NCBI RefSeq assembly: GCF_000264905.1
Contig: NW_006763134.1
Coordinates: 1,879,626-1,943,625 of the forward strand
Direction: 5' to 3'
Length of the DNA stretch: 64,000 nt
Origin: Stereum hirsutum FP-91666 SS1
Lineage: Eukaryota; Basidiomycota; Agaricomycetes; Russulales; Stereaceae
A program made the position numbers and the translations under genes. The notes beneath the pieces were generated by a model. The model was not told the DNA's origin, did not search any database, and saw only the letters and a program-made list of their open reading frames with translations. Below, piece by piece: positions 15,107 to 52,306 of the stretch; the stretch's first letter is position 1, and each line of letters opens with the position of its first letter.

Positions 15107-17095
15107 ATGTCAGGTCCCGCTCTTGCACTTTCTGAAGTCGTACTCCAAGACAAGCTTTGGTAAGAATCGGCCGCACTGTACCCATCTAGTCTTAGCGTTC
15201 TAAATTCCACCTCACCTTACAGGGTCATCGAGAATTATACGGAGGTTTCGTCCACCGGTGCGTTGATTTTACCTTCACACATTCTGTCCTTCCGTCATGG
15301 CTCTCATCCTGTCCAAACAAGCTCTATGGATCATCGATTTCCTTCAGACCTTACCGATGGAGATTGAAGCTGTGTGGTCGAGAACGCTAACAGGAACCAA
15401 AATACTGTTTCTTTTGAATCGATACTCCTTCGCGCTTTATCTTTTTGGGACGCTGCGCATCATCCTACCCGGAGACGTATCCAATGACGGGTGAGTGTCT
15501 TCTTCAAATAATTGGGAACCACCACGTACGATTAACGTGTGTTTATATAAGGTGTGCTGTGTTAAGCGATTGGACCATAGCGTTCAGATATGTCGCGTTA
15601 GTCACGACGAATGGTCAGCTCTCTTTTATGATCAAGTTCTTCGTGTGGGAGGCTCACTCAGTGGTTATCCGTCTTCAGCCCTCTTCGGACTCCGTGTCTA
15701 CGCCATTTGCGGTCGCATGAGGATTATTCTTCTTCTAGCGGTCGCATTAACGGGTGCGAGAATCGGCATCAACATCTGGGTGCGAACATTATGTTTGTTA
15801 TAATGACCACTTACTCATGTCGTGTACAGAGAGCCCTCATCTCCACGGGCGCGTCGACGGAAGGGACGCAGTTTGTCACATTCTCCGCTTGCAGGTCCAC
15901 ATCCACGCCTGGGCATGATCTCGAGTTGTTTCAGTGGTAAGCACCGGATCGCAACCGATTTTTTTCAATGCTTGATATCTACTACACATCGATGTACAAT
16001 CTAGGTGTACGTGCAGACAGTCTACTCCCTCACACAAACCCTTATATTGTTTGATGAACTTCCAGCCAACGTCATCACGAGCGTGCTAGCCTTGACCTTC
16101 GATGCATTCACCTTCTTTGTCACACTTATTAGGACGTACCAACATGTAATGGAAATGCGACGATTGGGACAGAAGGGCATAACGGAGTTGATTCTCCGGG
16201 ACGGTACGCAGCTCACCATAAAGTTGTCACGTGGAACTTACATGGTATATTAGGTATCATGTATTTTCTGTACGTCTTGAGACATCTTCGTCCCTATGTC
16301 TCTCCCCAAAATAATGCATGTTCTGACGGACATATAGCGCTGTATCTGTCATTCAAGGCGCCAACACTGCCCTATCATTGGTAGGGGTACTCTAGCTTCA
16401 TTCATGAACATCCTGCGCTGACACTTAGACAACAGCAGGCCATAGTTTTGGTAAGAGCGCCAACGACGTTGCGGTCACATTCAGCATAGACACGCTAAGC
16501 CTTCACGTAGGGCAGTACCGAAACATCCCTGACGATCGCCAACATCGTAACACCCTTCAATGCTTTGTAATTACAAAACCATTCGCATGCACTGCTTTCA
16601 CTCGAGAGAATCGTCTGACAATCTACGCTATTTAGGCTACCGAATCTATTCGTCAACCGTCTCGTCCTCAACCTCCGACTCTACAGTCAACAGCAAGAAT
16701 CAAGCGAATCATCCTCGCTACCGGGCATAGCCTTTGTCCAGAACCGTTTCTTAGGAAACATAGGAGCACCGTTGGATCACGACCAGTGGGATTCCATTCT
16801 TGACGATGTATTCGAGGACGCCGCAGGTGATGGTGGCGCTGACGCCAGCGGTCACGGTGTGTATGGCGAGGGCTGGGCGACGAGACCTAATGCGAACACA
16901 ACGCTTGTACCTGTGGTGGGCATGTTTCCAGCTTTCTGATTTTGGCGTGGACTGATTCTGGGATATTTTCGAAAGATCTACGACGAAGAGAACAGTGGAG
17001 CCATCGAGATGGTGGGTATCGAAAGGCGCCTGAGCACCGTCGCTATTCCATCAAGCACCATCGCCATACCGTCCAGTATCGTCGCAACCCCATGA
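15107..17095 (+). CDS. DUF6533-type multi-span membrane protein, paralog A (398 aa, 14 exons)
   Basis: Exons: 15107-15159, 15223-15257, 15322-15490, 15552-15613, 15679-15779, 15830-15936, 16005-16006, 16066-16203, 16254-16269, 16338-16380, 16436-16450, 16511-16566, 16636-16915, 16976-17095. All introns are GT-AG and phase is kept throughout. The DUF6533 core is LWIIDFLQTLPMEIEAVW then KILFLLNRY (residues about 31-60). Further hydrophobic segments include ALFGLRVYAICGRMR, SVLALTFDAFTFFVTL and YFLAVSVIQGANTALSL, consistent with a 7-TM receptor-like topology. The family motif GITELILRDG precedes the late spans. The cytosolic tail holds FLGNIGAPLDHDQWDS and ends near AIEMVGIERR; both motifs recur in paralogs B and C. 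Such proteins are expanded in Agaricomycetes; no ligand or partner is known. It is convergent with the downstream transcription factor gene. Confidence 0.85.
16005..16006 (+). other. 2-nt exon (GT) of paralog A
   Basis: The flanking introns are 15937-16004 and 16007-16065. The junctions read TG|GT|CC, giving Trp-Ser. Without these two bases the downstream conserved SVLALTFDAF frame cannot be reached from the upstream exon, which ends in phase 2. Confidence 0.6.
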
Positions 17096-33459: not shown

Positions 33460-35440
33460 TTAGTTTCGTGTTCGTCCCGTGGATACTAACGACAGTCGAT
33501 TGGGTGGTATTAGTGATCCACGCCGACGAGGCACCATCTCAATGTCGTCTTGGCTAGATTCATTACATTCCTTCGCTGTAAGATTAGCACGGTGATCGCT
33601 CGAATAACAACATATACGACGGCTTACAGTGGGTGGCGATTCAGCATCGGTGAGCCTATCTGTTGGCGTCATGGGCATCGTAGAACTACCGCGGATATCG
33701 CCCCTTTCATCATCCAGGGGGTTGTCATCCGAACTCATGTCCAGCCAGAGACTGTCCAGCGGCTCCCCTATATTCCCGAGAAACCGACTACGAGCGGGAG
33801 CGGCCTCGAAAGGACGAGTTTCGAGCGCAGAAGAGTGGGTGGATCGGTTTTGGTCGACGTTTCGTAGGTTCAGAACCAGGCGGTTGGTCAGGATGTTGGG
33901 TAGTCTGATTGCATAATGAGTCGGGAATCGAAGGACTGATTGAAGGAGAAGGCTCACACTGAAAAGAAAGGTGCCATGATTTCTGACATGACATTGAAAG
34001 CCTGCGAAGAGCCCTATGTGGAAGTTTGCGGTCAATATTATCTCTGATCTATCTTCAACGACGGACACAAACCTGCGATATAGATAACTGTGGGTGTAGT
34101 GCCAGGATCAGCCACAGAGGTCGGCTAGGCGATGCAGGGAAGAGCGACCTACCAGGTTTAAGATAGTCGCAGCCACCGCGAGGAGGACGATAGTGCTGGT
34201 ACAGAGATGCTCTGTCGATAATCTCAAACTTATCTGAGTACGGGACATGCTCACATGAAATAGAGCGTCCCTACGCAAAGTTAGTCAAGAATAATAACAA
34301 AACAACCCTGAACATCCTGAGGAAGATTGCTCACCGTCTCGAAGAACCACCTCAGCTATGCTTCGATGCCCGAATTTCCGCATCGCTATGACTTGGTGGA
34401 CAGTCTTGAAGAGCGTTACCGCAAATACGAACACGTCGAAAGCCAAGGCTAGTAAGACCGCAATGACACTGGCTAGAAGGTGTATGTGAATGTCAGCTGC
34501 TTATAGCATTTCGATCTAACGGATGGTCCGACTTACACCTGCCATAAACGAAATATGCATGAATTTTTAGTCGAAATCAAAGGGACTTTACTAATAAATG
34601 ATCCTAGTCCACTCACTGCTCGTAAACGTCACCATGTGGTGCATAGGACAGACATAATGACAGAGATTCGTATTGCGATCCTCTGGTCGAGATACCTGTC
34701 GACAAACCGGCTTGCTATACCAATCAAGTTGCAGCTCCAAGTCGTGAGTTGACATTGCCCTAAAACACGAAGAGTGAACTTACCCAGATATCCACCGCAA
34801 ATCGTGAGAAGATCAAGATGGACGCCACGCATAATATTAGTTTACTCCGTCCACAGATAGCGTAGATTCTGAGTGCGAAGAGAACTGCAGTGAGGTTATA
34901 TGGTGAGCCTCTGCTGAGATCCAATATCGATGAGAATTCAGACTCACGATTCGTGGCTAGAATCGAGGGTAAGAAAAAAACAGTGCTCATGAGGTTGAGC
35001 ACATTACAGCTAAGTGTCACATTCAGGATTTTGAAAACGATGAAATGATCTAGTAATGGGTGCTCTACCCCTTGTCGCTGCCTGACCCGGGTACATTGTA
35101 CGCCAGTTCTAATAGCCTGGCTCCTCCGAACCCATAGCGATCCACGAAGAATATTGCCGCTGTGATGGTGAGTTTCTTCGACCACATAGCCTCGATCTCC
35201 GCTGGCAAGGTCTGGAAGAAGTCATATAACCATAATACTACGGACAAACACGAAGTTTCTCTGTAAGCATGACCGCCTCGGTAAAAGGCACTCAACCTAC
35301 TTGTGGCAGAGACGATTGTATAGTTCGCGATCGTCCTGGGAGACAAAATCAGCAGTACGAAGCAATGTCGAGACATCAAGAGCTCCTCACCAGATTTGGT
35401 CTTCGAATGCAACCTCTTGGATGGCAGAAGGGTTTGTCAT
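33460..35440 (-). CDS. DUF6533-type multi-span membrane protein, paralog B (about 375-389 aa)
   Basis: Exons (minus): 35440-35391, 35335-35301, 35237-35069, 35009-34948, 34884-34784, 34682-34633, 34538-34537, 34472-34335, 34270-34255, 34195-34153, 34087-34073, 34001-33958, 33904-33460. Exon lengths match paralogs A and C at most positions. The core is LWLYDFFQTLPAEIEAMW, then LFALRIYAICGRSK, SVIAVLLALAFDVFVFAVTL, YFITIVLLAVAATILNL and LPNILTNRLVLNLR. The tail has FLGNIGEPLD and DDIEMVPRRR. Exon 6 is only 50 nt, against 104-107 in A and C, so this copy has lost about 18 residues of an extracytosolic loop. The last exon may hide a 42-nt intron before KECNESSQDD; both readings stay in frame. The remainder looks intact. 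Confidence 0.82.
34537..34538 (-). other. 2-nt exon (GT) of paralog B
   Basis: The minus strand reads TATGGCAG|GT|GTAAGT. The flanking introns are 34632-34539 and 34536-34473. The joined codons are TGG TCC, as in paralog A. Confidence 0.6.
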
Positions 35441-50336: not shown

Positions 50337-52306
50337 ATGTCTGACTCCGACGCTTCTGCAGTGTCTGCTGAGATATATTCCGATATCATCTGGTGCGTTT
50401 GGTCTGCTTGTCACATTTATTCGAAATTCTCACCAATGACTGTAGGTTGTTAGAGACTTACACTTCAGCGTCCTCCTCGTGTTTGCATATTTCCTCCGTC
50501 TATGTAGCCACCGATACTGACGGTTTTTTCCGTGGCCCTCTGTATCTTGAAGGTATCTGGGTCATGAGCTTCATACAGACTTTACCAATGGAGGTCGAGG
50601 TCGTTTGGAATAGCAAGATTACTTTGCCTACCATACTTTTCCTCCTCAATCGCTATGGCTTCAGCCTTGGTATGATTATTAATATGGCGCCTAGCTTTCC
50701 AGGAACTGAGACAGATGTGGAGTGAGTGATGCATTTCACTACCCCGACTATATGTTTACTAAGCAGTGGGTACCATATAGGTGCAACATGTCAAACGTCC
50801 TAGGAACGATCCTAACGATCGGTCCTCTTCTATGCACTAACTGTAGGTCAAGTTCGGATTTATCTCCCAAGTTGTGTTTAACACTGTGAATTGACAGTGT
50901 TCTTCACATTGAGGGTGTACGCCACCAGCAATCATAGCAAGTCGGTTCTATTCGTCTCCCTGGCCCTAATTCTGGCCAGACTAGTCGTTGATAGCTGGGT
51001 AAGCACTCACACAGATCGCTGGGCCGCACAAGTTTGACGGTCGCAAATGGTTTTACAGCAAGCAGCTCTCTCAGTGGGCGCATCCACTGCAAGAGATCCT
51101 GGTATTCATCTTGCCGCCTGCGAAGATGATATCACCGTAGCTAATCCGGCCCTTGTTAGCTGGTGAGTACTCCGCAGTGATAGTTATTTTTTCTCCAATG
51201 CTGAATCGTAAAATTGCCTTTCCCAGGTGTGAGTGTCAGAACAATGGTCATCTATGCGTCATGCCGCCATGTGTTTACAGTCCACACATGCATAGCTTAT
51301 GTCGCCTCCGGAGGCCTGGCTCTTACTTTCGATGGGTTCATCTTCGCCGTGACCGTCGTAAAGTTGTTTGGTCATCTTATGGAAATGCGGAAAATGACCA
51401 ACAAAGGTGGCATAACTGCACTCCTTCTACGCGATGGTTCGATCTTTCTTTCACATTGTATTCAATCCAGGCGGTCCTGATATCGATGGTTCTACTAGGA
51501 ATAATATATTTTATGTCAGTACTTATGTGGACCCTGTCCCAAAAACGCATCATCTCATTGAACGACGACGGTCATTTCTGCGATATTCAGCATCATGTTT
51601 CTGGTTGCGGCCACTCAGGCCGGTCTAGCTCTAGTAAGTCTCATCCCGATGTTCCCGATACTAACAAGTATATTGACATATGCATATGATGTTCAGGTCT
51701 CCGCCGTCAATGTACGTTCTCGTTCTCGTTCTCGTTCTCATTCTCATTCTCGACCTTGAACGTGGGCTACTGTCTCATCTTGCATCAGCCGGAGGCAGAC
51801 ATTCTATCAAACATCATGGATCCGTATTTTCAGGCGTAAGTCTTGATTCGAAACTAGTAATTGAGTTGGACATCTATAACAGCCATAACTCTGCAGTGTC
51901 CCAAATATTCTCGTTAATCATCTTTATCTCAACTTGCGAAGGGTGAATAGACCGCTGCCAGACTCTATGGCCGTTCCAGCGCAACCTCCCCAGAACAGAT
52001 TTCTTGGACATATCGGAGAGCCTTTGGACCACGATCAATGGGACAGTCAATTCGATTCTGAAGACTTCCCGGTGGACGACTCCGGCGTGGATGAAGATAC
52101 CATTAGGGACAATGCCGCCACGACGCTTGTACCGGTCGTGAGTGAGAACTCATATCAGTGAAAGCTATAACTATGCTAATATTGTGCGATCTCCAAAGAT
52201 TTATGATAATCGTGGGGCCGTGAGCAACGCGGACATCGAAATGGTGCCTATCGAGAGAGATTCACCTGGAGCAGGTCCCTCTCGCACGTCTGGATTGACG
52301 GCGTAA
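50337..52306 (+). CDS. DUF6533-type multi-span membrane protein, paralog C (384 aa, 14 exons)
   Basis: Exons: 50337-50392, 50446-50480, 50553-50721, 50781-50842, 50898-50998, 51059-51162, 51227-51228, 51281-51436, 51499-51514, 51591-51633, 51697-51711, 51789-51835, 51897-52137, 52199-52306. All introns are GT-AG with phase kept, and most exon lengths equal those of paralog A. The core is IWVMSFIQTLPMEVEVVW then TILFLLNRYGF. Later motifs: FFTLRVYATSNHSKSVLF, LALTFDGFIFAVTVVKLF, GITALLLRDG and NIMDPYFQAVPNILVNHLYL. The tail has FLGHIGEPLDHDQWDS and ADIEMVPIERD, shared with A. In C the usual CGR after the RVYA motif is replaced by SNH. It looks intact. Function is unknown; a receptor-like role is only suggested by topology. 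Confidence 0.85.
51227..51228 (+). other. 2-nt exon (GT) of paralog C
   Basis: TTTCCCAG|GT|GTGAGT; the flanking introns are 51163-51226 and 51229-51280. The joined codons are TGG TTC (Trp-Phe). Confidence 0.6.
51715..51752 (+). repeat. TTCTCG/TTCTCA hexamer repeat in an intron of paralog C
   Basis: About six hexamers in tandem, lying wholly within intron 51712-51788. They form a long pyrimidine-rich tract on the transcribed sense strand. Confidence 0.8.

What the first reader, a model, noticed from the sequence alone, without database searches (positions are those of the whole stretch)
15937..16065. A conserved 2-nucleotide exon in three dispersed DUF6533-type paralogs
In paralog A (16005-16006), B (34538-34537) and C (51227-51228) the upstream exon ends TG in phase 2, while the downstream exon (SVLALTFDAF or equivalent) needs phase 1. 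Exactly two bases are missing. In all three, a good acceptor is followed by GT and then at once by a donor: AG|GT|GTACGT in A, AG|GT|GTAAGT in B and AG|GT|GTGAGT in C. Taking GT as an exon gives TGG TCC, TGG TCC and TGG TTC. Retaining the second intron instead would need different phases in A and C (its length is 59, 64 and 52 nt), so the paralogs themselves reject that. Exons this short are below the usual limit for exon definition, so the spliceosome would have to use nearly overlapping acceptor and donor, perhaps sequentially as in recursive splicing.
Basis: partly seen in the sequence, partly recalled or inferred. Interest (0 to 1): 0.88.

Follow-up and report, generated by a model that had tools for sequence, protein, structure and literature searches.

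The report
A two-base exon in fifty genes
In the fungus Stereum hirsutum, 53 of 85 readable genes of one family of predicted seven-helix membrane proteins carry, at one and the same place, a predicted exon of only two bases whose length is kept but whose letters are not, so splicing there would have to rely on the neighbouring introns alone.

Summary
The 2-nt exon holds up and reaches far beyond three genes. The window lies in Stereum hirsutum FP-91666 SS1, whose genome has 131 DUF6533 matches; I read 111 of these loci. The exon after the site is recognisable in 85. With exon length left free (1-20 nt), the best model has 2 nt in 53 of 85, 8 nt in 11, another length in 8, none in 13. Fifteen of 16 dinucleotides occur: length is conserved, not "GT". 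A, B and C give matching 14-exon models with open frames of 398, 390 and 379 aa. Three similar paralogs have a [D1,2] stwintron-like layout instead, so the spacing of the paired splice sites is 8, 2 or -1 nt, always 2 mod 3. Skipping the exon shifts the frame before predicted TM5. Public S. hirsutum models carry the exact 2-nt junction in 3 of 10; gene A's loses a predicted helix. Best reading: two short introns, each paired by intron definition, removed in turn. No S. hirsutum transcript was seen. One-nt exons are known; this is a new, family-wide variant.

The parts
15107..17095 (+). Gene A (public model STEHIDRAFT_154884 = P0001): predicted 14-exon DUF6533 gene, 398 aa
   Evidence: Exon chain with open frame; PF20151 4e-12; P0001 91% identical over 74% of the query
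15830..15936 (+). A exon 6 (ends phase 2, ..TTTCAGTG)
15937..16004 (+). A intron 6, 68 nt, gtaagc..atctag
16005..16006 (+). A exon 7, the predicted 2-nt exon GT (TG|GT|CC = Trp-Ser)
16007..16065 (+). A intron 7, 59 nt, gtacgt..ttccag
16066..16203 (+). A exon 8, 138 nt (SNVITSVLALTFDAF.., predicted TM5)
   Evidence: TM5 by homology to the model of P0002
33460..35440 (-). Gene B: predicted 14-exon DUF6533 gene, 390 aa
34617..34714 (-). B exon 6, ends ..GAGCA|gtgagt (corrected donor)
   Evidence: frame of the conserved STRGSQYESLSLC segment
34539..34616 (-). B intron 6, 78 nt
34537..34538 (-). B exon 7, the predicted 2-nt exon GT (CA|GT|CC = Gln-Ser)
34473..34536 (-). B intron 7, 64 nt, gtaagt..ttctag
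34335..34472 (-). B exon 8, 138 nt
50337..52306 (+). Gene C (public model STEHIDRAFT_154893 = P0004): predicted 14-exon DUF6533 gene, 379 aa
   Evidence: the donors of introns 2 (gtttgc) and 8 (gttcga) are weak, and the public model keeps intron 2 as exon
51059..51162 (+). C exon 6, ends ..GTTAGCTG|gtgagt
51163..51226 (+). C intron 6, 64 nt
51227..51228 (+). C exon 7, the predicted 2-nt exon GT (TG|GT|CT = Trp-Ser)
51229..51295 (+). C intron 7, 67 nt, gtgagt..gcatag (corrected acceptor)
   Evidence: the peptide of P0004 implies the same acceptor
51296..51436 (+). C exon 8, 141 nt

Best explanation
At this place 53 of 85 readable DUF6533 paralogs of Stereum hirsutum have a predicted 2-nt exon between two short introns of about 60 nt, and it is likely made by ordinary intron definition, each intron pairing its own ends and the two being removed one after the other. 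The first base would complete one codon (most often Arg, Ser or Ile; Trp, Gln and Trp in A, B and C) and the second would open the next, so leaving the exon out shifts the frame just before the predicted fifth membrane helix. Shown from sequence: the length-2 spacing across paralogs, the freedom of its letters, the open frames of A, B and C, a branch-point-like motif enriched in both introns, and a predicted 8-nt exon in another clade. Inferred: that the RNA is really spliced this way, the order of the two steps, and that acceptor and next donor cannot be held at the same time because they overlap. Three similar paralogs carry the same intron pair as a [D1,2] stwintron-like nest, in which the upstream intron would have to leave first; a 3-base change would be enough to pass between the two forms in frame.
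For: Scoring with exon length 0-30 and no frame condition on that exon: 2 nt best in 39, 8 nt in 10, other 5, no model 31 of 85 loci. Relaxed scoring, 1-20 nt, each length in its own frame: 2 nt in 53, 8 nt in 11, other 8, none 13 of 85. AG offset spike at -2 (37 of 53, 3.6 expected) and -8 (12 of 53, 2.5 expected), with no AG at -3, -4 and -9 to -14. The same method recovers other exon lengths as controls: exon 4 at 62 nt in 40 of 48; exon 12 at 53 nt in 17 and 56 nt in 7 of 36. A, B and C: 14 exons each, exons 2-11 being 35, 169, 62, 101, 98-107, 2, 138-141, 16, 43 and 15 nt, introns 50-78 nt, no stops. A single intron across the site would be 129, 144 or 133 nt, longer than any other intron of these models. 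15 of 16 dinucleotides used; median pairwise identity of exon 8 is 39%. CTRAY in 29 of 53 introns 6 (9.3 expected from shuffles) and 18 of 53 introns 7 (8.8 expected). Public models P0002, P0006 and P0019 hold exactly the predicted junction peptides of L095, L032 and L086. Own-genome search with A's spliced 77-aa junction peptide: of 75 matches, 63 start at residue 29 or later (junction at 30/31), 9 reach 2-9 residues further, 1 is exon 6 itself and 2 run across. The 8-nt loci form one side of a branch, 100/100. Stwintron reading in frame in L060, L081 and L109, external intron 52 nt in each.
Against: No cDNA, EST or RNA-seq of S. hirsutum was available, so splicing itself is not shown. 7 of 10 public S. 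hirsutum models covering the site do not have the 2-nt exon; C's model uses an 8-nt exon GTGTGAGT there. 21 of 85 loci gave neither 2 nor 8 nt; some are decayed or divergent, and two (L060, L081) are the stwintron-like ones. Of the 53, the weakest score 6.9-9.9 against a median of 14.3, so single members may be wrong. 26 of the 111 loci read had no recognisable exon 8, and 20 of 131 loci were not fetched (a 361-base part of one came). In the exon-5 control 10 of 48 loci also show AG at -2, so one AGNNGT is weak evidence for any one gene. Paralogs are related, so counts are not independent events. Full open frames were built only for A, B and C. No intron-free copy of the junction was found to prove the two bases.
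Confidence: 0.85

Rival explanations
1. There is one long intron: exon 6 is joined straight to exon 8, the two bases are never exonic, and the genes are frameshifted or use another frame.
For: AG|GT can look like a zero-length recursive site in A, B and C; an intron of 129-144 nt is not impossible.
Against: The join shifts the frame and stops at codon 197 of 398 (A), 211 of 390 (B), 269 of 379 (C). A length of 2 or 8 nt is best in 64 of 85 loci. Other introns of the A, B and C models are 50-78 nt. Only 5 of 53 paralogs have GT.
Confidence: 0.04
2. The small exon is real but not 2 nt: another donor or acceptor gives a longer in-frame exon, such as 8 nt in gene C's public model.
For: P0004 carries VSWCESYVA, which needs GTGTGAGT as an 8-nt exon; a predicted 8-nt exon exists in another clade.
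Against: In C the longer form needs the weak donor gtcaga in place of gtgagt (9.4 against 14.4). The clade's 8-nt exon has its extra six bases on the other side of the conserved codon. For most of the 53 loci the next-best length scored clearly lower or there was none.
Confidence: 0.05
3. The whole site is a nested intron (stwintron) in every paralog and no exon bases lie between.
For: Three similar paralogs fit [D1,2] best; L089 and L104, with AA between, can be read both ways.
Against: The stwintron model outscores the exon models in only 4 of 86 loci tested (L060, L081, L109 and, by 0.2, L104).
Confidence: 0.03
4. The copies are decaying pseudogenes in which splice sites happen to lie close together.
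For: A few copies look decayed (in L027 the stretch in place of intron 7 is 26 nt); several public models are truncated.
Against: A, B and C have full open frames over 14 exons; the spacing is kept among paralogs with a median of 39% identity.
Confidence: 0.03

Closest known systems
Single-nucleotide exons of plant APC11 (Guo and Liu 2015, PMC4674806; passages read) and VPS55 (PMC8831610; passages read)
   Same: Ultra-short, conserved, missed by annotation; for APC11 the authors favour intron definition plus successive removal and report that the kind of base does not affect splicing.
   Different: One base, one or two genes per genome, in plants, with RNA proof. Here two bases, about fifty paralogs, a basidiomycete; no RNA proof.
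Single-nucleotide exon of Fusarium CYP621A (Nelson and Syed 2026, PMC12940212; abstract, passages and Discussion read)
   Same: Fungal ultra-short exon found by phase mismatch in an over-long intron.
   Different: One base, the same in all 24 genes (AGGGT), one P450 subfamily, RNA reads shown. Here length 2, variable letters, large paralog family.
Microexons of Phanerochaete P450 genes (PMC1184071; passages read) and of Trichoderma Xlr2 (PMC11121469; abstract and passages read)
   Same: Small exons in fungal genes.
   Different: Shortest P450 exon given as 6 bp; Xlr2 is a regulated cassette. No 2-nt exon in the passages seen.
[D1,2] spliceosomal twin introns (stwintrons) of ascomycetes (PMC5639578, passages read; PMC12403724 and PMC6616335, search listing and a term search without hits)
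   Same: Two short nested introns, consecutive splicing by intron definition; the L060/L081/L109 layout G|internal|TGAG matches.
   Different: In 53 paralogs here two bases would stay in the mRNA. The words 'microexon' and 'basidiomycet' do not occur in the main text of these three papers.
Single-nucleotide exon between two group II introns in fungal mitochondrial rnl (PMC12308204; passages read)
   Same: Ultra-short exon in fungi.
   Different: Mitochondrial group II introns, not spliceosomal ones.
SNB1 (snowball) of Coprinopsis cinerea, a DUF6533 protein needed for fruiting-body patterning (PMC10949477; passages read)
   Same: DUF6533, seven predicted membrane helices.
   Different: Whether it belongs to the same subfamily was not tested; the word 'intron' does not occur in its main text.

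Membership tests
Ultra-short constitutive microexon | Exon of a few nt flanked by two complete introns with canonical sites | tested here: met
   GT and AG at both introns were required by the model in all 53 loci; not required: +5G in 96% (intron 6) and 92% (intron 7), branch-point-like motif enriched in both
Ultra-short constitutive microexon | Inclusion needed for the reading frame | tested here: met
   Skipping gives early stops in A, B, C
Ultra-short constitutive microexon | Conserved across related genes or species | tested here: met
   53 of 85 paralogs of one genome.
Ultra-short constitutive microexon | Transcript reads with the exon included | not testable with these tools
   No S. 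hirsutum RNA reads; public models only (3 of 10 match)
[D1,2] stwintron (A, B, C and the other 2-nt loci) | External donor split between nt 1 and 2, no exon bases between the introns | tested here: not met
   Scores below the 2-nt model, or no such model, in 52 of the 53; L104 is the exception, by 0.2
[D1,2] stwintron (L060, L081, L109) | G|internal intron|TRNG external donor, in frame after both excisions | tested here: met
   internal 76-81 nt, external 52 nt; exon 8 of the three 71-86% identical
[D1,2] stwintron (L060, L081, L109) | Splicing intermediate lacking only the internal intron | not testable with these tools
   Needs RT-PCR
Zero-nt recursive splice site | AG|GT regenerating a donor, no bases left in mRNA | tested here: not met
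   GT in only 5 of 53; frame broken without the two bases in A, B, C
DUF6533 (PF20151) | Pfam match above the curated cut-off | tested here: met
   A 46.5, B 38.2, C 36.1 bits, cut-off 24.1

The most novel reading that the evidence does not exclude
Microexon and stwintron are two states of one evolving intron pair: the distance between the first intron's acceptor and the second intron's donor steps through 8, 2 and -1 nt in units of whole codons, so an exon can shrink through two bases to 'minus one' and the locus slides into a nested intron without losing frame. The family would then show that exons need carry no splicing information at all, and would offer an origin for ultra-short exons and for stwintrons.
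Probability: 0.45. Interest if true: 0.85.

Novelty: new variant of a known kind. Interest (0 to 1): 0.74.

Why it matters
One genome holds some fifty natural variants of a predicted 2-nt exon, with nearly every dinucleotide and with alternative 8-nt and 'minus one' versions, in front of the same protein helix. That makes three questions directly testable: how short an exon may be, whether its letters matter, and in what order two introns with overlapping sites leave. It also points to an annotation fault: gene A's public model drops a predicted membrane helix at this place, and 15 of 26 homologous models from other sources are gapped there.

Tried and rejected
Looked for an intron-free copy of the junction in the same genome. 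Of 75 matches to A's spliced peptide only two ran clearly across: C18:277537 turned out to be the stwintron-like L109; C5:432588 (three stops inside) was not fetched. L024 first looked like a loss of intron 6; rejected, because the implied frame has a stop, and a CTAAC with an AAG acceptor fits a normal intron (read by eye; the scoring agrees). L061, L063, L074 and L091 gave no 2-nt or 8-nt model; L093, L094, L103, L106 and L107 look like a divergent group. L027 is decayed. The gap count in other species' proteins is only a hint: positions 204 and 81 are gapped more often than the junction. P0007 (probably L072) differs from my model by KF against NL; not resolved. The tree rests on 45 columns: only the 2/8 split is solid, and it is unrooted, so which length is older is open. 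Rfam found nothing in the window.

Literature: searches for 1- or 2-nt exons and microexons, stwintrons, DUF6533 (22), Stereum with short exons (79). In the 9-20 titles and abstract beginnings listed per search for the microexon searches (capped lists) I saw no 2-nt exon of a nuclear fungal gene; DUF6533 gave two papers. Only open-licence PMC papers are held. Volfovsky 2003 (exons of 2-5 bp in Arabidopsis, Drosophila and human) is known to me through PMC12940212 and was not readable. That U1 and 3' splice site factors would collide on AG|NN|GT, and the order names Polyporales, Russulales and Agaricales, are recalled.

Full report
What is there. The window belongs to Stereum hirsutum FP-91666 SS1: the best database match of gene A is STEHIDRAFT_154884, on a contig of 2,758,430 bases, the length of G000:C4. 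Six-frame search of the genome gives 131 matches to DUF6533, PF20151. Three of these are the finding's A, B and C.

Gene models. Read exon by exon, A (15107-17095), B (35440-33460) and C (50337-52306) each have 14 exons and an open frame of 398, 390 and 379 aa. Exons 2-5 are 35, 169, 62 and 101 nt in all three, exon 6 is 107, 98 or 104, exon 7 is 2 nt, exon 8 is 138, 138 or 141, exons 9-11 are 16, 43 and 15 nt. Introns are 50-78 nt. Each protein matches PF20151 above its cut-off. Leaving out exon 7 gives stops at codons 197, 211 and 269. The models were fitted by hand; a few donors in B and C are weak.

The family. A profile of exon 8 found it in 85 of 111. I then let the length of the exon before intron 7 vary. 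With no frame condition on that exon (0-30 nt), the best score gives 2 nt in 39 loci, 8 nt in 10, other lengths in 5, nothing in 31. With laxer site scores, lengths 1-20, each length tested in the frame it implies, 2 nt wins in 53, 8 nt in 11, other lengths in 8, nothing in 13. Among the 53 the scores run from 6.9 to 19.2, median 14.3.

Control. Independently of any gene model, the strongest donor upstream of exon 8's acceptor was taken in 53 loci and AG counted at each distance before it: 37 at distance 2 (3.6 expected from 2050 other donor-like sites), 12 at distance 8 (2.5 expected), none at 3, 4 and 9-14. Repeating this with a rebuilt profile gave 32 and 10 of 43. The same procedure at exon 5 finds exon 4's 62 nt in 40 of 48 (and AG at 2 in 10 of 48, at 8 in 3); at exon 13 it finds 53 nt in 17 and 56 nt in 7 of 36 (and 2 in 2, 8 in none). 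So the method measures exon lengths, and the excess at 2 in one control warns against trusting a single gene.

What is conserved. 15 of the 16 dinucleotides occur among 53 loci; GT in 5. G just before donor 7 is 23%, against 45% before donor 6. Intron medians are 60 and 58 nt. CTRAY, a branch-point-like motif, is present in 29 of 53 introns 6 (9.3 expected from shuffles) and 18 of 53 introns 7 (8.8 expected). Exon 8 is 39% identical at the median, so the layout is probably old. The 11 loci with 8 nt form one side of a branch with full support. Their exon has the same phase, with six extra bases on the upstream side.

A nested form. L060, L081 and L109 (exon 8 71-86% identical to each other) have no GT after the two bases. 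They read exon 6..|G, internal intron of 76-81 nt, TGAG.., acceptor, exon 8. Excision of the internal intron followed by the external one (52 nt in each, donor G+TGAG) restores the frame with canonical sites; a single intron does not. Keeping TG as a 2-nt exon would also be in frame, but the next intron would then start with AG. In a scan of all 85 loci plus L109 the nested layout beats the exon models in these three and, by 0.2, in L104. It is what the literature calls a [D1,2] stwintron (PMC5639578, passages). The spacing of the two splice sites is therefore 8, 2 or -1 nt, always 2 mod 3, and one 3-base deletion would turn a 2-nt exon TG before GTGAG into the nested form. That path is inference.

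Public models. Of 10 S. hirsutum models that cover the place (P0001-P0004, P0006, P0007, P0013, P0019, P0028, P0042), three (P0002, P0006, P0019) contain the predicted 2-nt junction exactly. The others skip, alter or replace it. A's model joins FQW to TYQHVMEM and so loses SNVITSVLALTFDAFTFFVTLIR. In 26 homologs from other sources, aligned to P0047 (which I chose because its junction is in register), the junction is in register in 11 and gapped in 15. Four in-register ones (P0056, P0067-P0069) come from unnamed short contigs (986-2144 bases) and may be spliced transcripts; their nature was not checked.

Protein. AlphaFold2 of P0002 (371 aa, mean pLDDT 79.7) shows seven long helices with a hairpin before the fifth; the split codons (T175, S176) fall near the start of that helix, 170-208. 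Foldseek lists 36 PDB chains at E <= 0.001, all G-protein-coupled receptors, Ste2 included, at modest TM-scores (0.32-0.49 by query length). SNB1 of Coprinopsis is a DUF6533 protein with seven predicted helices, needed for fruiting (PMC10949477).

Mechanism. Short introns, ordinary-looking sites, and free exon letters fit intron definition: each intron is found as a unit and the exon is what is left. Because acceptor and donor overlap, the two introns are probably removed in turn. For APC11 of Arabidopsis the authors report that the kind of base has no effect on splicing, and they propose intron definition with successive removal (PMC4674806, passages). In plants the downstream intron tends to leave first (PMC8831610, passages); the nested S. 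hirsutum copies would need the upstream one first. No RNA was seen here, so both inclusion and order remain predictions.

Noticed in passing
window 16254-16269, 16436-16450; 34255-34270, 34073-34087; 51499-51514, 51697-51711: Two further tiny predicted exons (16 and 15 nt) are conserved in length in A, B and C.
   Followed up: partly
window 15107-17095: Public model STEHIDRAFT_154884 also lacks exons 3-4 (with the DUF6533 segment) besides the predicted TM5 segment; it carries no Pfam label.
   Followed up: yes
L016, L007, L037, L105, L048, L004, L065, L040, L019, L045, L052: Another clade has a predicted 8-nt exon at the homologous place.
   Followed up: yes
L089, L104: With AA between acceptor and donor, ag|AA|gta can also be read as a nested intron using AAG as acceptor; the two products would differ by one codon.
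   Followed up: no
L027: Decayed-looking copy in which the stretch corresponding to intron 7 is only 26 nt.
   Followed up: no
L072 / P0007: Public model reads HSKFKLGD where the 2-nt model gives HSNLKLGD; not explained.
   Followed up: no
L093, L094, L103, L106, L107: A divergent-looking group; in L094 and by eye in L107 a 28-nt exon seems to precede the downstream intron, in another phase.
   Followed up: no
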